Assembly (NCBI RefSeq): GCF_000828895.1
Contig: NZ_AP014568.1
Coordinates: 860,417 to 875,748, forward strand
Direction: 5' to 3'
From: Serpentinimonas raichei
GTDB lineage: Bacteria > Pseudomonadota > Gammaproteobacteria > Burkholderiales > Burkholderiaceae_C
DNA length: 15,332 nt
A program made the translations under genes and the position numbers. Below, one piece after another: positions 2,444 to 14,049 of the stretch. The notes under the pieces are model-generated. The model was given only the letters and a program-made list of their open reading frames with translations. It did not search any database and was not told the origin of the DNA. The stretch's first letter is position 1, and the number at the start of each line of letters is the position of its first letter.

Positions 2444-3811
2444 ATGCCCGATTTTGTCATCAAACAACTGCCCTACGACTTGAGCCAGCACGCTGGCTTG
2501 GCCCTGATTGGCAAGTACCTCAAGCGCATCAATCTCAACGCCTTGGTCGACCCCGCTTACCCCGTGCGCAGCGGCATCGCCAATAGCGACATCCTCAAGA
2601 GCTACCTGGGCCTGCTGTGTCTGGGCAAGAACGATTTTGATGCCATCGAAGGCCAGCGCCAAGACACTTTCTTCACCCGCGCCTTGGGCTTGCGATCGGT
2701 GCCCTCGTCGCCCACCCTGCGCCAGCGCTTGGACACCCACGCGCCAGCTTGGTTTGACTTGATCGATGACATCAACACCGCGGTTTTGAGCCTCAAGCTC
2801 GAGGGCCAGCCCATCGACTTCGGGGCGCTGCCCTGTGCTTATGTGCCACTGGACATCGACACCTTCGCCATGGACCAAAGCGGCACGGCCAAGGAGCATG
2901 TGGGGCGCACCTATGCGGGAGTGGACGGCTACTGCCCGCTGGTGGCCTACTTGGGCACCCAAGGCTTTTGCCTGGAGTTTGCCCTGCGCCCGGGCACCCA
3001 GCACTCGGCCAGCGAGACCGAATACAACATCGAGCGGCTGCTGCCGCTGGCGGCCAAAGTCACGGCAGCGGCCCAGCCGCCCTTGCTGCTGCGGGCCGAC
3101 TCGGGCTTTGATTCGGCCAAGCTGATGTGTGCCATCGCCCGACAAGCCAAAGCCCTGCAGCGCGAGGTCGCGTGGCTCATCAAGTGGAACCCGCGCAGCA
3201 CGCCGGTAGAGACCATCGCCCAGGCACGGGTAGCCGATGCCAACACCGCTTGGACGGTATTGCGCCCCGGTAAACGCCAGTGCCTGTGGGAGCAAAGCGT
3301 GGCCATCAGAGACGGTAACGAGAGCCTCAAAGCACGCCGCGTGTACCGCCTGACCGAGCGCACCGTTGACAAACGGGGCCAGCAGATGCTGTTGCCCGAG
3401 TATGTGCTGGAAGGCTGGAGCACCACCTTGCCTGAGTCGTTCACGCCCGAGCAGGTCATTGCCTTGTACGCCGAGCACGGCACGCATGAGCAGTTTCACT
3501 CGGAGTTCAAAACCGACATGGATCTGACCCGGCTGCCCTCGGGCAAGTTCGACACCAACTACGTGGTGTGCGCGCTGGCGGCCGTGGCGATGAACCTGCT
3601 GCGCTTGGTTGGCCAGCACACGCTGCACGGGCCCGATGCACCGGTGCGCCACAGCGCGCAGCGCCGTCGCATCCGCACGGTGATACAGGAGTTGATGTTC
3701 AAGGCCGCCCGCATGGTGGACCATGCCCGCCAGTGGGTGTTGGGCTTGGGGGCCAACGACAGGGCCTTTGCGGTGTTTGAGCGCCACTGGCGCGCGCTTG
3801 ACGCGCTGTAG
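2444..3811 (+). CDS. IS1380-family transposase
   Basis: A 455-aa DDE transposase of normal IS1380 length that cuts and joins the ends of its own element. Visible family marks include PLDIDTFAMDQSG (first acidic residue region, about residue 140), LLRADSGFD (second Asp, near 215) and HEQFHSEFKTDMDLTRLPSG with the candidate catalytic Glu near 355. There are no frameshifts or internal stops, so it should be functional. The ATG at 2444 follows a stem-loop that may hide its ribosome binding site. The frame is opposite to the host operon, so operon transcription would give antisense RNA across it. A long minus-strand ORF covering the same DNA is a shadow. Confidence 0.93.
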   Translation: MPDFVIKQLPYDLSQHAGLALIGKYLKRINLNALVDPAYPVRSGIANSDILKSYLGLLCLGKNDFDAIEGQRQDTFFTRALGLRSVPSSPTLRQRLDTHAPAWFDLIDDINTAVLSLKLEGQPIDFGALPCAYVPLDIDTFAMDQSGTAKEHVGRTYAGVDGYCPLVAYLGTQGFCLEFALRPGTQHSASETEYNIERLLPLAAKVTAAAQPPLLLRADSGFDSAKLMCAIARQAKALQREVAWLIKWNPRSTPVETIAQARVADANTAWTVLRPGKRQCLWEQSVAIRDGNESLKARRVYRLTERTVDKRGQQMLLPEYVLEGWSTTLPESFTPEQVIALYAEHGTHEQFHSEFKTDMDLTRLPSGKFDTNYVVCALAAVAMNLLRLVGQHTLHGPDAPVRHSAQRRRIRTVIQELMFKAARMVDHARQWVLGLGANDRAFAVFERHWRALDAL

Positions 3812-6344: not shown

Positions 6345-7431
6345 ACAACACCAAATCAAAGCTGTTGCTGGCATGCTGGCGCAAGTAGCAAGTGTAGTCT
6401 GGGCAAATATCACTGATCAAATCAGGCAGTTGCCACAAATCGTCTGGTTTGTGGTAGGCCGAGATCGCCAGCACGGGGCGGGAACTGCGCAGCGTATGGG
6501 CTGCTCCGCGCAGCGCCGCAGCTTCTGCGCCTTCAATATCGAGTTTGAGCAGATCGATGCCTTCACCGGCCAGCAAATCGTCAACTGCAACAGTGGATAT
6601 GCAGTCGTCGCCATCTGGGCGGATCGTCCCGGCCATGCCTTGTTGACCGCCGAAACGCAGCACCGCATACCGATCGCTCAAACCCAGCGGCACACAATGC
6701 CAGCGCACTTTGGCGCCGCCCACCTGCAGGCGCAGGAGTGCAAAATTAGCTGGGTCGGGTTCAAACAACCAAGCCCGCTCTACCGATGCGAGTTGCAGCA
6801 ATTGCAGCAAACTGTCGCCATTGTACGCGCCGCCATCTAGGTAGCGCAAGGATGCGGCATTTTCGCGCAGGGGTGGCAGGGTGATTGCATTGAAATACTG
6901 TGGCTCGGGGTGAGCGAAACCTGCATATTCCAAATCAAGACCCATGCGAAACGCCACCACGCGCTCCAGGCATTGTTGGCTGGTATCATCGGCCAAGCGG
7001 CTGTGGGTGCGGCGCAGATCGTCGGCGTGATGCGCCAGGTATTGTGGGCTGGACAGCCAGTAGCGCCAGCCCAGCGCGGCACTGAATTGGGCGTAGCTGT
7101 CCCATGGGGGCAAAACAGTGCGAAATCCAGCCTGCTGCGCCAACTGCACCAAGCCATCCATGGGCATCAAGTAATTGTGAATGCCGATCAACAGCGGGCA
7201 AACGAAGTCGTGCGCACTCAAGCCGCACCAGCTTGTGACCGGCAGCCCATCTAAACTTTTCGTAGTAGGTGCAGTCTGTATAAAGCCGCGCACCCGTATG
7301 CCTTGCGCAGCACAGGCCTGGGCCAGTGCCCGGCCAAACAAGCCGCCACCAAAAATCCAGACCTCTTGCCCGGGTAGCAGCGCACGCGGGGGCTGAAGTT
7401 GGGCCTGCAGTCGCTCGAACCAGTCGCTCAC
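6322..7431 (-). CDS. FkbM-family methyltransferase with N-terminal Rossmann-like module
   Basis: 369 aa. The start is GTG at 7431, whose last two bases begin the stop of the upstream ThDP enzyme (GTGA, 4-nt overlap); GGAG lies 9 nt upstream (7441-7444). A longer frame from 7560 would run 133 nt inside the upstream gene with implausible sequence. Residues 26-37 (IFGGGLFGRALA) start a Rossmann-like module such as those found on sugar-modifying proteins. The FkbM methyltransferase domain follows with YLDGGAYNGDS near 197-207 and LLKLDIEGAEAAALRG in the second half. FkbM proteins usually O-methylate sugars or polyketides using SAM, so this gene probably methylates a hydroxyl of the operon's sugar or glycan. 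Substrate unknown. Confidence 0.83.
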   Translation of the reverse strand: MSDWFERLQAQLQPPRALLPGQEVWIFGGGLFGRALAQACAAQGIRVRGFIQTAPTTKSLDGLPVTSWCGLSAHDFVCPLLIGIHNYLMPMDGLVQLAQQAGFRTVLPPWDSYAQFSAALGWRYWLSSPQYLAHHADDLRRTHSRLADDTSQQCLERVVAFRMGLDLEYAGFAHPEPQYFNAITLPPLRENAASLRYLDGGAYNGDSLLQLLQLASVERAWLFEPDPANFALLRLQVGGAKVRWHCVPLGLSDRYAVLRFGGQQGMAGTIRPDGDDCISTVAVDDLLAGEGIDLLKLDIEGAEAAALRGAAHTLRSSRPVLAISAYHKPDDLWQLPDLISDICPDYTCYLRQHASNSFDLVLYAVPNSR

Positions 7432-9233
7432 GGTGCGAGGCTCCGAATTTGAGTGGCGGCGCTGCGCACGGCAGCCACGGTGGCGGGATCGAGAAAGGGA
7501 TACATGTCGTCGAGTTCCGGGGTGATAAATTGTCCCTTGCTGTCCAGGCGCGATTTGCAACGCGGCTCGAAATTCTGTTTTGGGTCAACGATCAAGTTGA
7601 GCAGCAGCGGCCCATTTGATTGCAGACACTCATCGAGGCGATCCAGGTCTGCCACCGAGGCGATGGTGGCGGCCTCGATGCCGTAGGCCTGTGCAACCTG
7701 GCAAAAATCGGGAAACTCGACTCCGCTGGCTGGGTTGGCACCAATCACGCGCCCAAAGAAATTTTCATGCGTTTGTGAGATGCTTAGGTAGCCTGCGTTG
7801 TTGAGCACCAGGATGATGATTGGCAGGCCGGAGGTTTTTAGGGTTTGCAGTTCTTGGATATTCATCTGCAGGCTGCCATCACCAGCAAAACACAGCACCC
7901 GCCCAGGATTGTGAGCGCGTGCGGCACCCAAGGCGGCAGGCAAGTCGTAGCCCATCGAGGCCGAGCCCGAATTGCTGAACATGCGGTTGTTTGGCCCCAG
8001 GCGGCCGATCTGAAACGGGATGATGCAGGCCGAGGCATTGCCGCAGACCACCACATCATCTGGGCGCAGCTGCTTGAAAATGCGCTCCACCACAACATAG
8101 GGGTTCAGAGCTGCATGGGGTGTTTGCGGGTGCTCATGGCGCACATCGAAACGCTGGCCCAGTTCGCGCACCCACGCCAGCCAGGGGCTGAAATTTGGCA
8201 AATCCAGCTTCTGCAAGGCTTGCCCCAAAGCGGCAACAAACTCCTTGGCATCGCATTGCAGGCTCAGATCAACGGGTACGCCGGGTTTGTTGAGTTCGGC
8301 TGCGTCGATATCGATTTGCACCACAAAAGCATGCTTGGCAAAAGACTCAAAGTTGTAACTGCTTTGGCGGATGTTCAAGCGCGAACCGATGACCAAAACC
8401 CAGTCTGCCGCTTGCAGGGAGAAATTGCCTGGGCGTGTGCCTATGGTGCCCGGCCGTCCGGCAAACAGGGGGTGCTCAGAGGCAATCAGGTCGTGGGTCC
8501 AGGCCGTGGCCATAGGCAAACCATGGGTTTCACACAGTTGCAGCAGGTCGGGCACGGCCTTGGCCAGGCGCACCCCGGTGCCACCCAGCACCAAGGGCCG
8601 GTTTGCAGTGCGCAAGCGCGCTGCAATTTGCGCGCAAATGGCCTGCAATTCTGGGTTCTGTGTAGGCGCCGGAAATACAGGGTCGGGAATGTCAAAGTCC
8701 ACTTGCGCCGATTGAATGTCGAGCGGAATATCGAGCCACACTGGGCCAGGTCGGCCAGAGACTGCTTGCACGTAGGCCTCAGGCAGGTATTGCTGCAAAT
8801 CGATTGGCTCGCGCAGCAGGCGCGCGTATTTGCACAGCGGGCCAGCGACTGCAATCGTGGGGCCTTCCTGATCGCCCAGTTGGCGCAAGCTAGGCAGTTG
8901 ATGAAAATCCAGGCAGGTGGCGCGCTTGACCTGGCCCGATAAAACCAGCATCGGAATCGAGTCGGTGTAGGCACCGAATACGCCATTGAGGGCGTTCAGG
9001 GCACCGGGGCCAGTCGTGAGCATGACGACGGCGGGTTTGCCCTTGATGCGGGCATAGCCTTCGGCCGCCATGGCACAAGCCTGCTCGTGGTGCATAAAGG
9101 TGCAGCGCAAGCCGGGGTGCGATCCCAGTGCCTGGTTCAGAAACATGGCCCCGCCACCGGTGACGGCAAAGACCTGCTCGATGCCTTGTCGCACCAACCA
9201 GTCGGCAATCAAGTCGGAAAGCTGCGCGCTCAT
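7428..9233 (-). CDS. ThDP-dependent acetolactate-synthase-like enzyme, YerE-like by context
   Basis: 601 aa, full length for the ThDP superfamily. The pyrimidine-domain Glu is E50 in MHHEQACAMAAEGYAR; the central domain lies at about 190-330; the ThDP/Mg motif starts at GDGS (451) and ends at NN (478-479). The C-terminal tail ends in PELDDMYPFL, a form I associate with surface-sugar members rather than biosynthetic AHAS, and no regulatory subunit gene is adjacent. YerE decarboxylates pyruvate and adds the two-carbon unit to C4 of CDP-3,6-dideoxy-4-ketohexose on the way to yersiniose. With rfbF, rfbG and rfbH upstream, the same type of reaction is the best guess. The ATG directly abuts the stop of the NeuB-like gene (TAAATG). 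Isoleucine/valine biosynthesis is the less likely alternative. Confidence 0.85.
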   Translation of the reverse strand: MSAQLSDLIADWLVRQGIEQVFAVTGGGAMFLNQALGSHPGLRCTFMHHEQACAMAAEGYARIKGKPAVVMLTTGPGALNALNGVFGAYTDSIPMLVLSGQVKRATCLDFHQLPSLRQLGDQEGPTIAVAGPLCKYARLLREPIDLQQYLPEAYVQAVSGRPGPVWLDIPLDIQSAQVDFDIPDPVFPAPTQNPELQAICAQIAARLRTANRPLVLGGTGVRLAKAVPDLLQLCETHGLPMATAWTHDLIASEHPLFAGRPGTIGTRPGNFSLQAADWVLVIGSRLNIRQSSYNFESFAKHAFVVQIDIDAAELNKPGVPVDLSLQCDAKEFVAALGQALQKLDLPNFSPWLAWVRELGQRFDVRHEHPQTPHAALNPYVVVERIFKQLRPDDVVVCGNASACIIPFQIGRLGPNNRMFSNSGSASMGYDLPAALGAARAHNPGRVLCFAGDGSLQMNIQELQTLKTSGLPIIILVLNNAGYLSISQTHENFFGRVIGANPASGVEFPDFCQVAQAYGIEAATIASVADLDRLDECLQSNGPLLLNLIVDPKQNFEPRCKSRLDSKGQFITPELDDMYPFLDPATVAAVRSAATQIRSLAP

Positions 9234-10343
9234 TTAAATTCCACGGTTTTTAATGATGTTTTTCAAGGTGGCGGTGTTGCTATACGGGCCGTCGATGTGC
9301 TCGATGGTGAGTTTGTCGTGCGCGGCGATCGGCTGCAGCAGGCGCTCACCGTTCATCACTTCGCGGCACGACAGTTGCCCTTTGTGCAGCGGAATGGCCA
9401 GGTAAAAATCTTTGTCGAAATCGGCTTTGCTAAATACATAACCCGGCTCCAGCGGGCGCCGGGCGTACACACCACGCACCAGGGCGTCGAGGTATTCGGT
9501 TTCTTTGCGCGAGATCACGCGCCGGCTCTGCCCCACGCCACCGCACATTTCGCGTGCCTTGTGAAAGGCCTTGAACCAGGTATCGCACTGCTGCGGCAAG
9601 GAGCAGTAGCTTGATACTGCTACCCCGTCGGCTTCGATGTCGATATGGCGCTCCCAGGTGCGTGCGCCCTTGCCATAAGAGATCAGCATTGAGGAAGACC
9701 AATCGTGGTATTCGTGGGTTGAAAGACCAATCACGTGGCCCGGATAGCGGTTGCGCAGGTAGTCGATTTGATCCAGGTTGAGCTCGGCGTCTTCGCTCGG
9801 GTAGAGCGAGATGCAGTGGTTGATGGCCAGGGGAATGTCGCGTTTTTCAAAAAACCGAACCAGGTCGTCCAGGTCTTTTTCTGAGGCGCCTCCGGTAGAG
9901 ACTATGGTGGGCCTGCGTGTGGAGGCGATTTTCTCGATCAGGGGCCAGTCGTTCATGTCGGAGCTGGCGATCTTGATGATCGGCATATCGAACTCCAGGC
10001 ACAAATCCACCGAGGCTTCGTCGAACGGGGTGGCCAGTGGCAGGCTGGCTATGTTGCGAATTTCATCGACGAGGATGGAAAATTCGGCCCGACTGAGTTT
10101 GGTGGCTTCGGTTTTCTTGACGTAGCGCAGTTCCTGGTTGCCCTTGAACTCTGGGTGGATGAACTCATCCACATCGCGGAATTGCAGCTTGATCGCGGCT
10201 TTTACGTTGTTGTAGCGCGCCACGGTGCCGTGCTCGCGCACGATCTTCAAACCGCGCGCCACGCTGCCCAGGTGGTTGTTGGCCAGTTCCAGGACGAACA
10301 AGTTTTCAAATAAATCCCGGTCGCGTTGCTTGATCGTTCCCAT
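9234..10343 (-). CDS. NeuB/SpsE-like PEP-condensing sugar-acid synthase
   Basis: 369 aa with the NeuB barrel followed by a SAF (antifreeze-like) domain. Motifs: LELANNHLG (E19, H24), IKLQ (K52), TPFD, KIAS (124-127), STGG (149-152), NHCISLYP (H176), IGLSTHE (H210) and ERHID (E231, H233). H210 and H233 match the metal-binding histidines of sialic acid synthase, but the usual SDHT is STHE. The C-terminal part from about residue 300 (YARRPLEPGYVF) is the SAF domain. NeuB enzymes join PEP to an aldose to give a 3-deoxy-2-keto sugar acid. No CMP-transferase or UDP-sugar epimerase for a nonulosonate is seen here, so the acceptor may instead come from the CDP-dideoxyhexose route. The ATG follows a strong GAGGAG and lies 29 nt after rfbH. 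Confidence 0.8.
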   Translation of the reverse strand: MGTIKQRDRDLFENLFVLELANNHLGSVARGLKIVREHGTVARYNNVKAAIKLQFRDVDEFIHPEFKGNQELRYVKKTEATKLSRAEFSILVDEIRNIASLPLATPFDEASVDLCLEFDMPIIKIASSDMNDWPLIEKIASTRRPTIVSTGGASEKDLDDLVRFFEKRDIPLAINHCISLYPSEDAELNLDQIDYLRNRYPGHVIGLSTHEYHDWSSSMLISYGKGARTWERHIDIEADGVAVSSYCSLPQQCDTWFKAFHKAREMCGGVGQSRRVISRKETEYLDALVRGVYARRPLEPGYVFSKADFDKDFYLAIPLHKGQLSCREVMNGERLLQPIAAHDKLTIEHIDGPYSNTATLKNIIKNRGI

Positions 10344-10372: not shown

Positions 10373-11986
10373 TTAATGAAAGTTGATGCCCAAGTAGCTC
10401 TCGATCCGTTGCGCGGCAAACTCCAGCATTTCAAGCGTGAGCGCTGGCTGCACCCCGATCCAGAAGGTGTGCTTCATCACCGTGTCGGTATTGCGCAACT
10501 CACCGCTGATGCGGTAGTTTTGGCCTTGCATATAGGGCTGGCGCGTGAGGTTGCCAGCAAACAGCAAGCGCGTGCCGATTTTGTTTTGCTCCAGGTATTG
10601 CAGCAAGTCCAGCCGCGTTACCGGACAATTTTCGCGCAGCGTAATGGGAAAGCCAAACCACGAGGGGTCGGCGTGCTCGGTGGCTTGCGGCAGGTGCACG
10701 TATTCCTCGCAGCCTGCAAGCCGCTCTTTGAGGAAGGCGAAATTGCGTTTGCGCGCCGCAATGAACTGCGGGGCCTTGTCCAACTGGGCCAGCCCGCAGG
10801 CGGCCTGCATGTCGGTGATCTTGAGGTTGTAGCCCAGGTGCCCGTAGGTGTATTTGTGGTCGTAGCCTTCGGGCAAGCTGCCCAGCTTCCAGCAGTAGCG
10901 CTTGCCGCAGGTGTTGTCCTTGCCTGGCGGGCAGTAGCAGTCGCGGCCCCAATCGCGAAAGCTCTCGGCTATTGCTTTGAGTTCGTCGCTGTGGGTGAAT
11001 ACCGCGCCGCCTTCGCCCATGGTGATGTGGTGTGCCGGGTAAAAGCTCAGCGTAGCCATGTCGCCGAAGGTTCCCACCATCTGTCCACGGTAGGTGCTGC
11101 CCAGGGCGTCGCAGCAGTCTTCAACCAGCCAAAGCCCGTGTTTTTTGCACAGTGCTGTGACCACGTCGAGGTTGAAAGGGTTGCCCAGGCTGTGGGCCAG
11201 CATGATGGCCTTGGTTTTGGGGCCAATGGCGGCCTCGATTTGGCTGGCTTCGATGTTGTGGGTGTGCAGGTCCACATCCACAAACACGGGGACTGCACCA
11301 AACTGGATGATGGGGTTGACCGTGGTTGGAAATCCCGCCGCCACCGCGATCACCTCGTCACCGCGGCGAATGGCGCGCTGGCCCAGTTTGGGCGATGTCA
11401 GGGTGCTGAACGCCACCAGGTTGGCCGAGGAGCCGGAGTTGACGGTAATCAGGTGTTTGACGCCAATGAAGGCTGCCAATTTTTTCTCGAACTGGGCATT
11501 GAAGCGCCCCGTGGTCAGCCAGCCGTCAAGCGAAGCCTCTACCATGAGTTGGAGTTCGGCGGCGTCGAGCAATTTGCCCGAGGGCGGAATGGCGCTTGTG
11601 CCGGGCACAAACTCGCGTGGCGCAAATGCGCTTGCCGAAAAATGCGCGACTTCGTCTTGAATGACGTGCCGCAACACGGTTTGCAGCGCTTGGGGCGTGA
11701 GTTGCGCCAGTTGCTTGACCGCAAGGCTGCCGTTGAGCAGCATGGATTTTTCGGGGCGCACAAAGCTTTGGAATGGCAAGGCAGGGCCGACAAAGTCGTC
11801 TGCCCCTAGGGCCAGGCGATTGGCCGACGCAGCCGGTGGGGTGGTGGTAATGAAGACGAAGCGTGCGTCGCCTGTGCTGTCGGGCGCGGTAATGGCCAGT
11901 GCCGGTCGGTATTTTTGCTGGGCCAGCTTGGTGTAGGGGAATGGCAACTTGTAGATGCCACCTTGGTGGATGGATGCCTTAAACAT
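10373..11986 (-). CDS. rfbH: PemK/MazF-type toxin domain fused to RfbH (CDP-4-keto-6-deoxyglucose 3-dehydrase)
   Basis: 537 aa from ATG 11986, which overlaps the antitoxin-like stop (ATGTTTAA, 8 nt). An earlier in-frame ATG at 12031 lies inside the antitoxin gene and is unlikely. Residues 1-110 are PemK/MazF-like: [20 protein letters not shown] with R27, FITTTP with T47, then [15 protein letters not shown] and the helix [15 protein letters not shown]. From about 110 it is RfbH: FVPG (126-129), NSGSSAN, then C292, C350, C352 and C360 in the exact C-x57-C-x-C-x7-C spacing of the [2Fe-2S] cluster of E1. H319 stands where PLP enzymes have Lys. RfbH uses PMP and the cluster to remove the C3 hydroxyl from CDP-4-keto-6-deoxyglucose with an E3 reductase. 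Cys292 against Cys193 of E1 gives an offset of 99, so nearly all of RfbH is kept. The RfbH part is certain; toxin activity is untested. Confidence 0.92.
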
Positions 11987-12209
11987 TGTTCCAGCAATCT
12001 TCTGCAGGGTTGAGCAGGACGTTTTGTGCAAAGTTGCTTTGGCTTTGCAGTTGCAGTGCTGCTTGTTGCTCAGGGCTTAGGCTGCTGCTTGCAGTGGCGG
12101 AATCGGCATCGGCATCTAAAAAAACAACCACCACTTTGGCGTCGAGTGGCAGACCCTCTTGGGGCAAATGGATGTGCCCCTTAAGGCATTGCGCCTGTAT
12201 GGCTAGCAT
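11979..12209 (-). CDS. Small antitoxin-like protein paired with the PemK-like domain
   Basis: 76 aa. It begins [16 protein letters not shown] and continues DAKVVVVFL, a short beta pattern like the N-termini of MazE/AbrB-like or related small antitoxins. A Gln/Ser-rich linker follows, then the acidic tail [10 protein letters not shown], like the toxin-binding tails of antitoxins encoded before PemK/MazF toxins. It overlaps the end of rfbG by 7 nt, has AGGAG 7 nt upstream (12217-12221), and overlaps the toxin-RfbH ATG by 8 nt. This antitoxin-first overlapping order is typical of type II modules. It probably binds and blocks the toxin domain fused to RfbH. No helix-turn-helix is evident, so autorepression is uncertain. 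I call it by size, position and pattern rather than a clear family match. Confidence 0.7.
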
Positions 12210-13279
12210 GTCTGTGCTCCTGTGTGCGTTTGCATGTAGTCTTGTATTTGCTGGAGCGAGTGCTGTTGCATATCACTTGCACCCAGGTAGGCTTGGTGCC
12301 ACTCAACGGTTTTTTGCAGGGCCATGCCCAAAGGCCAGCGCGGTTGCCAGCCTAAGCGGGCTTGGGCCTTGGAAATGTCTAGTTTGAGGTGGTGTGCCTC
12401 GTGCGGGTGCGTGCCACCGTCTGGCTGCCAATGGGTGCCATTGCCCCAACTGTTCACCATATGCTCAACAATCCATTGCACTGGCTGTGCATCGTCATCC
12501 CTCGGGCCAAAGTTCCAAGCTTGAGCATAATCGTGGCCTTGTTCGTAAAGCCGCTCGGCAAGGGCTAGGTAGCCGCTCAATGGCTCCAGCACATGCTGCC
12601 AAGGCCGGATGGCATGTGGGTTGCGAATGCGAACGGGCTGGCCTTGCTCGAAGGCCCTGAGAATGTCGGGGATGAGGCGGTCTTGCGCCCAGTCGCCGCC
12701 GCCAATGACGTTGCCTGCGCGGGCGGTGGCCAAGGCTGCGCTGCCGGGCGTGTGGAAGAAGGAGCTGCGGTACGCAGCCGTAACCAGCTCAGAGCAGCCC
12801 TTGCTGTTGCTGTAGGGGTCGTGCCCGCCCATGGGCTCGTTCTCCCGGTAGCCCCAGACCCACTCCCGGTTCTCGTAGCATTTGTCGGTGGTGATGTTTA
12901 CAACCGCCCGGATTTCGGGCGTGTGCCGCACCGATTCCAGCAAATGCACCGTGCCCATGACGTTGGTGGCGTAGGTTTCCACCGGGTTTTGGTACGAGCA
13001 GCGCACCAGCGGCTGCGCGGCCATGTGGATAACGATCTCGGGCCGCGCCGCCTGCATGGCTTGCTGCAAGTGGGCCAGCTCGCGGATGTCACCCAAGATG
13101 GAGCACATGCCTGCGCGCACGCGCGCCTGCTCGAACAGGTTTGGCTGCGTAGGAGGGGCGAGAGCAAAGCCAGTCAGCTCGGCACCCAGGCTTTGCAGCC
13201 ACAAACACAACCAACTGCCTTTGAAGCCGGTTTGCCCGGTGACGAACACCCGTTTGCCGCTCCAAAAGGCCGGATTCAT
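12203..13279 (-). CDS. rfbG: CDP-glucose 4,6-dehydratase
   Basis: 358 aa, the usual family length. It converts CDP-glucose to CDP-4-keto-6-deoxyglucose with bound NAD. The nucleotide site is GQTGFKG (residues 15-21). The family signature [20 protein letters not shown] starts at 129 and includes D132 and K133, and the catalytic YSNSK is at 156-160 (Y156, K160). The start is the ATG at 13279, which forms ATGA with the rfbF stop and follows GGAAGG (13287-13292) by 7 nt. The frame also has an ATG at 13294, but that one would lie deeper in rfbF. It acts between RfbF and RfbH. Its TAG stop overlaps the start of the antitoxin-like gene. Confidence 0.96.
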
Positions 13280-14049
13280 GACCAGACCTTCCAAGGGGCC
13301 TTACCAGTGGCCCAGAGTTCTTCGAGGTGGGTTTTGTCGCGCAGGGTGTCCATGGGTTGCCAGAACCCGCTGTGGGCGTAGGCGGCGAGTTGACCCTGTT
13401 TGGCCAGCGCTTCCACCGGCTCGCGCTCCCAGGTGGTGGCGTCATCCGCTATGTAGCCGAGCACGGCAGGGGAGAGCACGAAAAACCCGCCGTTGATCAA
13501 GGCCCCGTCGCCTTGGGGTTTTTCGCGAAAGGTGCGCACCCGCTGGTCGGCCAGGTCGAGCGCGCCAAAGCGCCCCGGCGGCAAGGCGGCGGTGAGGGTG
13601 GCCAGCACACCTTGTTGCTGGTGAAATTCGATCAAGGCGCGGACATCGACATCGGCCACCCCATCGCCGTAGGTGAGGCAAAACGCGGTTTCGCCTTCCA
13701 AATAAGGCGCTGCGCGCTTGATGCGGCCACCGGTCATGGTGTCGAGCCCGGTGTCGAGCAAGGTGACGCGCCACGGTTCGGCGTAGCGCTGGTGCACCTG
13801 CATCTGGTTGTTGGCCATGTCGAAGGTGACGTCGGACATGTGCAAAAAGTAGTTGGCGAAATACTCTTTGATGACGTAACCTTTGTAGCCGCAGCAGATG
13901 ATGAAATCGTTGATCCCGTAATGGGAGTAGATTTTCATGATGTGCCACAAAATCGGCTTGCCGCCGATTTCCACCATCGGTTTGGGGCGCAGCGCAGTTT
14001 CTTCGCTGATGCGCGTTCCCAAACCACCGGCCAATATCACGGCTTTCAT
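13276..14049 (-). CDS. rfbF: Glucose-1-phosphate cytidylyltransferase
   Basis: 257 aa, full length. It makes CDP-glucose from CTP and glucose-1-phosphate, the first committed step toward CDP-linked 3,6-dideoxyhexoses. The N-terminal signature is [19 protein letters not shown], followed by [28 protein letters not shown] supplies the Asp residues for metal and nucleotide. The ATG overlaps the stop of the upstream glycosyltransferase (ATGA) and its own stop overlaps rfbG (ATGA), so three genes are chained by 4-nt overlaps. Family members act as soluble hexamers. Assignment is secure. Confidence 0.97.

What the first reader, a model, noticed from the sequence alone, without database searches (positions are those of the whole stretch)
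10373..11986. PemK/MazF-type toxin domain fused in frame to an intact RfbH
The first ~110 residues carry the toxin pattern with the Arg (R27) and Thr (T47) positions used by MazF ribonucleases. The remainder keeps every RfbH catalytic feature (C292/C350/C352/C360 in exact cluster spacing, H319). The toxin's last helix seems to merge with RfbH's N-terminal helix, so nothing essential is lost from either. I know of no characterised toxin joined to a deoxysugar dehydrase. It could be a toxin tamed as a regulatory or oligomerisation module, or an active RNase that ties cell survival to the sugar operon.
Basis: partly seen in the sequence, partly recalled or inferred. Interest (0 to 1): 0.88.

Follow-up and report, generated by a model that had tools for sequence, protein, structure and literature searches.

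The report
Guarded toxin fused to sugar enzyme
In this bacterium, and in scattered relatives from several bacterial groups, a domain of the MazF/PemK family of RNA-cutting toxins is built into the same protein as an enzyme that makes a cell-surface sugar, usually with a small antitoxin-like gene just in front of it, so possession of the sugar pathway may be tied to a lethal guard.

Summary

A 76-aa antitoxin-like gene (11979-12209) lies between rfbG and the fusion and overlaps both. In a scan of 84,980 species genomes with the toxin domain alone, 23 of 23 confirmed loci were fused to RfbH.

The MazF catalytic Arg and Thr/Ser are both kept in 27 of 27 fusions with an antitoxin gene (one interrupted by a stop codon), but in only 1 of 8 without a recognised one. 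This suggests that guarded forms are live RNases and unguarded ones mostly decayed.

Best reading: a type II toxin-antitoxin module captured by the O-antigen operon, its toxin now part of an enzyme. RNase activity, neutralisation and the biological benefit are inferred, not shown. I found no report of this architecture in the open-access papers searched.

The parts
13276..14049 (-). rfbF/ddhA, glucose-1-phosphate cytidylyltransferase, first step of the CDP-sugar branch
   Evidence: TIGR02623, 470 bits, cut-off 300
12203..13294 (-). rfbG/ddhB, CDP-glucose 4,6-dehydratase; its end overlaps the antitoxin start by 7 nt
   Evidence: TIGR02622, 510 bits, cut-off 278; coordinates
11979..12209 (-). 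antitoxin-like gene, 76 aa, C-terminal AEDCWNNV; its stop overlaps the fusion's ATG by 8 nt
   Evidence: ORF; relatives at the same place in 24 other fusions aligned, E70, D71, W73 invariant in the 25; no Pfam match for the window's own, 3 of 25 members match the RelN antitoxin model weakly, best E 2.6e-4
10373..11986 (-). toxin::RfbH fusion gene, 537 aa
   Evidence: same fusion in other genomes
11696..11986 (-). MazF/PemK-type barrel, residues 1-97 (R27 codon 11906-11908, T47 codon 11846-11848)
11627..11695 (-). shared helix, residues 98-120: last helix of the toxin and first helix of RfbH
   Evidence: AF2 full-length model, H98-120; RfbH profile begins at residue 102
10376..11683 (-). RfbH/E1 CDP-4-keto-6-deoxyglucose-3-dehydrase part, residues 102-537
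   Evidence: NF011936 733 bits; Foldseek 3bcx TM 0.93 normalised to the target, 62% identity; catalytic residues invariant in 29 of 29

Best explanation
A type II toxin-antitoxin module of the MazF/PemK class was captured between rfbG and rfbH, and the toxin's terminal helix took the place of the first helix of RfbH. The product is one polypeptide with an RNase-type toxin at the front and a CDP-sugar dehydrase behind it, encoded right after its own antitoxin by an overlapping start. While the O-antigen operon is expressed, the antitoxin masks the toxin and the dehydrase works. If the operon is lost, swapped, interrupted upstream, or shut off, the labile antitoxin should disappear first and the stable fusion should cut RNA. 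The toxin cannot be discarded by an early stop or frameshift without losing the dehydrase. Shown: the fusion, the fold, conserved catalytic residues, the conserved antitoxin-like gene and overlap, amino-acid conservation at saturated synonymous sites, and the link between antitoxin gene and intact active site. Inferred: RNase activity, neutralisation, antitoxin lability, translational coupling, and the role as a guard of the surface-sugar locus.
For: Catalytic Arg and Thr/Ser both kept in 27 of 27 fusions with an antitoxin gene (one interrupted by an in-frame stop) and in 1 of 8 without a recognised one, Fisher p 1.2e-6, not corrected for relatedness; in the first-found set, 26 of 26 against 1 of 3, p 0.007. 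These two residues are needed for K. pneumoniae MazF activity (PMC8086154, abstract and passages). The antitoxin stop overlaps the fusion's ATG in 24 of the 25 fusions whose antitoxins were aligned: 19 by 11 nt, 4 (the window's class) by 8, 1 by 20; in L007 there is a 12-nt gap. Synonymous sites are near saturation while amino acids are held, for example window/L056 dN/dS about 0.06 in the toxin and 0.11 in the antitoxin; a toxin ratio could be computed in only 3 of 14 pairs (0.06, 0.07, 0.29). In a scan with the toxin domain alone, 23 of 23 confirmed loci were joined to RfbH, one of them (L104) with a truncated RfbH frame. The window's rfbG, antitoxin gene and fusion overlap.
Against: No activity was measured. 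The window's own domain is below the PF02452 cut-off (17.9 of 23.1 bits). The antitoxin belongs to no curated family except a weak RelN match in 3 of 25 (that model's cut-off is 70 bits). The counts of antitoxin and catalytic pair are not independent: rows are related, and the five decayed forms of the phylum sample come from similar genomes. The antitoxin profile is not very sensitive (it scores the L166 antitoxin only E 0.047), so absence rests also on reading upstream ORFs. One antitoxin-less fusion (L045) keeps both residues, and L109 keeps them although its antitoxin frame is interrupted. In two close pairs the toxin changes faster than RfbH (L009/L024, L007/L056). A weak terminator-like site lies inside the window's antitoxin gene on the coding strand (12141-12129; 4 sites found in the region against 1.4 in shuffles). 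Many loci are from MAGs.
Confidence: 0.55

Rival explanations
1. The MazF fold has been tamed: it no longer cuts RNA and serves as an N-terminal scaffold (dimer or partner contact), and the small upstream protein is a regulator of RfbH that binds this scaffold.
For: Decayed barrels without the catalytic pair and without a recognised antitoxin persist on RfbH (L039, L051, L189, L192, L194, L195, L196), so the fold alone can be kept. hhalign of L189, L192 and L194 against the 29 gives probability 96.6%, E 4.7e-10. Three RfbH proteins carry only an antitoxin head at the N-terminus.
Against: In forms that keep the antitoxin gene the catalytic pair is kept in 27 of 27; a pure scaffold has no need of it.
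Confidence: 0.25
2. The toxin is an active but regulatory RNase: fusion plus antitoxin adjust the operon's own mRNA or RfbH amount, with no killing role.
For: Overlapping, operon-embedded arrangement. No sigma-70-like promoter match in 11900-12700, though 0.4 would be expected by chance, so this says little.
Against: No direct evidence; cleavage specificity unknown.
Confidence: 0.15
3. Sequencing or assembly frame error, or internal initiation that yields a free RfbH.
For: Free RfbH is the commoner form (102 of 113 RfbH-bearing genomes are not among the fused, two of them uninspected); the window has in-frame candidate starts within the domain.
Against: The window lies in a single-contig genome; the same junction is found in the records of Rhodoferax antarcticus, Thiorhodococcus mannitoliphagus and Methylotuvimicrobium buryatense, which are not labelled MAG, and in MAGs; no internal start with a Shine-Dalgarno-like motif is conserved.
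Confidence: 0.03

Closest known systems
MazEF / PemIK (Kis-Kid) type II toxin-antitoxin systems, PF02452
   Same: Barrel fold, catalytic Arg and Thr positions, small antitoxin-like gene just upstream with overlapping start, acidic and aromatic antitoxin tail
   Different: The toxin is not free: its terminal helix continues into a 435-residue enzyme; the module lies inside a biosynthetic operon; the antitoxin is of no curated family
RfbH / DdhC / E1, CDP-6-deoxy-L-threo-D-glycero-4-hexulose-3-dehydrase (3bcx)
   Same: Whole catalytic domain, His in place of the PLP lysine, four cluster cysteines (roles recalled), rfbF-rfbG-rfbH order
   Different: N-terminal helix replaced by a MazF domain; about 100 extra residues; antitoxin-like gene inserted after rfbG
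MazF-XF1863 systems predicted by Makarova et al. 2009 (PMC2701414; section 11 and passages seen)
   Same: MazF toxin with an antitoxin of uncharacterised family; predominantly in proteobacteria and Chlorobi/Bacteroidetes
   Different: No fusion to an enzyme is described in the passages seen; membership of our antitoxin in XF1863 was not tested
Solitary MazF of Myxococcus xanthus, recruited to development (PMC2701414, passages)
   Same: A MazF taken into a host pathway
   Different: There the toxin is free and paired with a transcription factor; here it is covalently part of an enzyme and keeps an antitoxin-like gene

Membership tests
PemK/MazF toxin family (PF02452) | MazF/Kid barrel fold | tested here: met
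PemK/MazF toxin family (PF02452) | Pfam score above the curated cut-off | tested here: not met
   Window domain 17.9 bits against 23.1; 23 of 29 fused N-termini, the window's among them, match at E 0.1 or better, best 7.8e-13
PemK/MazF toxin family (PF02452) | Catalytic Arg and Thr | tested here: met
   R27 and T47, aligned to MazF, conserved as; role from PMC8086154 (passages)
PemK/MazF toxin family (PF02452) | Sequence-specific RNase activity | not testable with these tools
   Needs biochemistry
Type II toxin-antitoxin module | Small antitoxin gene directly upstream, overlapping | tested here: met
   11979-12209, 8-nt overlap; conserved at this place. That it is an antitoxin is inferred from place, tail motif and toxin partner
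Type II toxin-antitoxin module | Antitoxin of a recognised family | tested here: inconclusive
   No Pfam family matches more than 1 of 25, no PADLOC match; RelN model in 3 of 25, best 2.6e-4
Type II toxin-antitoxin module | Antitoxin neutralises toxin; autoregulated promoter | not testable with these tools
   No promoter-like site found in 11900-12700, 0.4 expected by chance, which shows little
RfbH/E1 dehydrase (NF011936) | Equivalog score above cut-off over the full model | tested here: met
   733 bits, cut-off 423, model 6-437 of 440
RfbH/E1 dehydrase (NF011936) | His replacing the PLP lysine; four cluster cysteines | tested here: met
   H319, C292, C350, C352, C360 invariant in 29 of 29; H220 of E1 corresponds to H319 by the ranges; the roles of these residues are recalled
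RfbH/E1 dehydrase (NF011936) | rfbF and rfbG beside it | tested here: met
   TIGR02623 and TIGR02622 above cut-off
RfbH/E1 dehydrase (NF011936) | Dehydrase activity with its reductase partner | not testable with these tools
   Needs biochemistry; the reductase gene was not sought

The most novel reading that the evidence does not exclude
A toxin-antitoxin module has become a built-in guard of a cell-surface sugar: the toxin is covalently part of a required enzyme of the sugar's pathway, so cells that lose, swap or shut down that surface-antigen locus (for example under phage attack) are arrested. The pair spreads between bacterial groups as a unit and leaves decayed-toxin and antitoxin-head scars on RfbH where it has been disarmed.
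Probability: 0.35. Interest if true: 0.92.

Novelty: new variant of a known kind. Interest (0 to 1): 0.82.

Why it matters
Free toxin genes are easily lost by mutation (general knowledge). Here loss of the toxin by truncation costs the cell its surface sugar, and loss of the sugar locus would free the toxin. That makes a direct test possible of a long-argued question, whether chromosomal toxin-antitoxin modules protect neighbouring genes, with a natural series of active-looking, decayed and scarred forms for comparison. A methanotroph, Methylotuvimicrobium buryatense 5G (genetically tractable, recalled), carries the active-looking form.

Tried and rejected
Frame error and internal initiation: rejected.

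One single ancient fusion inherited vertically: not supported by the RfbH tree, in which 11 fused rows among 60 need 10 changes, at least 5 of them forced by well-supported branches; shuffled labels need 10.3 on average (quick method, many weak forks). In the toxin tree the 29 fused rows are clustered against 13 free ones (3 changes against 11.3 shuffled) and one clade is not rejected (p-AU 0.096), but long branches and two half-empty free rows weaken it. Together these suggest exchange and loss of the cassette rather than many independent fusions; this is inference. DNA pairs show homology on both sides with a break at the end of rfbG and within the first tens of codons of rfbH.

A free close relative of this toxin: none found. 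Plasmids and phages gave no match to the window's domain at E 1e-3. More distant free MazF relatives exist in the family and order, including one in the same genome, L006.

Anti-phage library: no antitoxin match in PADLOC; the fusion itself was not scanned against PADLOC.

Papers (titles and abstract starts unless said): 'RfbH'+'PemK' 0 papers; 'RfbH'+'toxin-antitoxin' 5 listed, none on a fusion; 'MazF'+'DegT' 8 listed, none on a fusion, one opened at its passages, where the hit was an author name; wider searches gave 9, 1 and 2 papers and one on PemK with aminotransferase or domain architecture gave 55, of which 15 were listed; no report of the fusion among those listed. PMC2701414 was seen in passages and section 11. 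The library is open-access PMC only.

L116 and L117 carry another N-terminal extension of about 120 residues that the barrel profile does not match at E 1; left open.

Full report

THE MISSED PARTNER. Between rfbG and the fusion lies a 76-aa ORF, 11979-12209. It overlaps rfbG by 7 nt and the fusion by 8 nt (ATGTTTAA). At the same place, 24 other fusions that I aligned have a related ORF; glutamate, aspartate and tryptophan of the tail (E70, D71, W73) are invariant in all 25. Stop and start overlap in 24 of the 25: 19 by 11 nt, 4 by 8, 1 by 20; L007 has a 12-nt gap. The family is uncurated: no Pfam family matches more than 1 of 25, the RelN antitoxin model matches 3 of 25 at best 2.6e-4, PADLOC none. 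No sigma-70-like promoter match was found in 11900-12700 (0.4 expected by chance); a weak terminator-like site lies inside the antitoxin gene at 12141-12129.

HOW WIDESPREAD. In whole-genome samples, 51 of 399 genomes of the order (E 1e-80), 11 of 369 of the class and 54 of 399 of the family (E 1e-100) have an RfbH match; counting shared genomes once, 113. Eleven of these are fused. The loci of all but two of the 113 (G229, G1116, cut by contig ends) were scanned with the barrel profile (G640's is also cut); strongly decayed domains may be missed, since the profile scores such domains near E 1. In the phylum sample 42 of 398 match, and I inspected 36 of the 42: besides the window, G1299 has a further fusion with an antitoxin-like ORF and intact residues, G1333 a contig-edge piece of one, and five others carry a decayed domain. 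The scan of genome contigs with the toxin domain of five fusions gave 94 pattern matches, 23 of them confirmed; all 23 lie on RfbH, L104 with a truncated RfbH frame. The patterns came from fused toxins, so distant free ones would be missed. Records include Rhodoferax antarcticus, Thiorhodococcus mannitoliphagus, Methylotuvimicrobium buryatense 5G, and MAGs labelled Nitrosomonadales, Methylococcaceae, Desulfobacterales, Nitrospirae, Chloroflexi groups, Chlorobiaceae, Salinivirgaceae and Neomarinimicrobiota. Some MAG labels are doubtful: the record named Cytophagales (L096) has the contig length and sequence of the G031 locus, which is placed in the window's own family.

ACTIVE OR TAMED. Conservation in 26 antitoxin-bearing fusions: Gly9 26, Arg27 26, Lys80 26, Thr47 24 with Ser in the other 2. 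With G1299 added, both catalytic positions are kept in 27 of 27 with an antitoxin gene and in 1 of 8 without a recognised one (Fisher p 1.2e-6); one of the 27 (L109) has its antitoxin frame interrupted by one stop. For the eight, no upstream ORF with the antitoxin tail is present; L195 and L196 do have a short ORF ending 4 nt into the fusion start, without that tail. Rows are related, so the p-value is too small. Arg28 and Thr51 of K. pneumoniae MazF are needed for activity (PMC8086154, abstract and passages); the same passages say that in some other MazFs the Thr matters less. Three of the five decayed domains of the phylum sample were compared by profile and are homologous over the whole length (probability 96.6%, E 4.7e-10); the other two (L195, L196) were only aligned with them, and L196 has an Arg nearby that another gap placement could put at position 27. 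Selection (14 pairs): synonymous sites are near saturation, so a toxin dN/dS could be computed in 3 pairs only: 0.06 (window/L056; antitoxin 0.11, RfbH 0.10), 0.07 (L110/L111) and 0.29 (L009/L024; RfbH 0.03). In L111/L112 the toxin (dN 0.069) is more conserved than RfbH (dN 0.198); in L007/L056 it is less so (0.40 against 0.08).

HISTORY. The RfbH tree places fused and free forms side by side: window with its congener G001 free (support 96), G031 with congener G910 free (99), G373 with free congeners (97). DNA of these within-genus pairs is homologous on both sides, 74-83% identical, with a break at the end of rfbG and inside the first tens of codons of rfbH, where roughly 30-40 codons have been exchanged for the antitoxin-toxin cassette. 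Three RfbH genes (L130, L160, L161; antitoxin-profile E 4e-7, 1e-5, 1e-4; a fourth, L128, only 0.042) begin with an antitoxin head joined directly to RfbH, without toxin. This looks like a disarmed remnant; the order of events is inference.

MECHANISM. Inferred: a live RNase held by its antitoxin, made only with the operon, and not removable by truncation without losing the dehydrase. Rival readings and refuters are listed above. I put the active, guarded reading at 0.55 and the tamed scaffold at 0.25.

NOVELTY. Each half is known; the joined, antitoxin-escorted form was not found in the papers listed. Not a categorically new system: a new variant of type II toxin-antitoxin modules.

Noticed in passing
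L130, L160, L161 (and weakly L128), N-terminus of RfbH: RfbH begins with the antitoxin's head domain joined directly to the enzyme, with no toxin in between: an apparent disarmed scar.
   Followed up: partly
L116 and L117, N-terminus of RfbH: A different extension of about 120 residues on RfbH in two genomes of another family of the order; no match to the MazF barrel profile at E 1.
   Followed up: no
window 7428-9233 and 9234-10343, minus: An acetolactate-synthase-like TPP enzyme and a NeuB/PseI-like synthase (both below the NCBIfam cut-offs) follow RfbH, so the CDP-3,6-dideoxy sugar may be branched by a two-carbon unit (as in yersiniose; recalled).
   Followed up: no
window 2444-3811, plus: A DDE transposase gene (PF13701, E 2.4e-25) within the surface-sugar cluster.
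   Followed up: no
L006 (G000:C1:1671960-1672247): A free MazF-like toxin with its own upstream antitoxin-like ORF in the same genome, distantly related to the fused domain.
   Followed up: partly
L109 4740-5060: The antitoxin frame of this Methylococcaceae MAG is interrupted by one in-frame stop although the fused toxin keeps its catalytic pair.
   Followed up: partly
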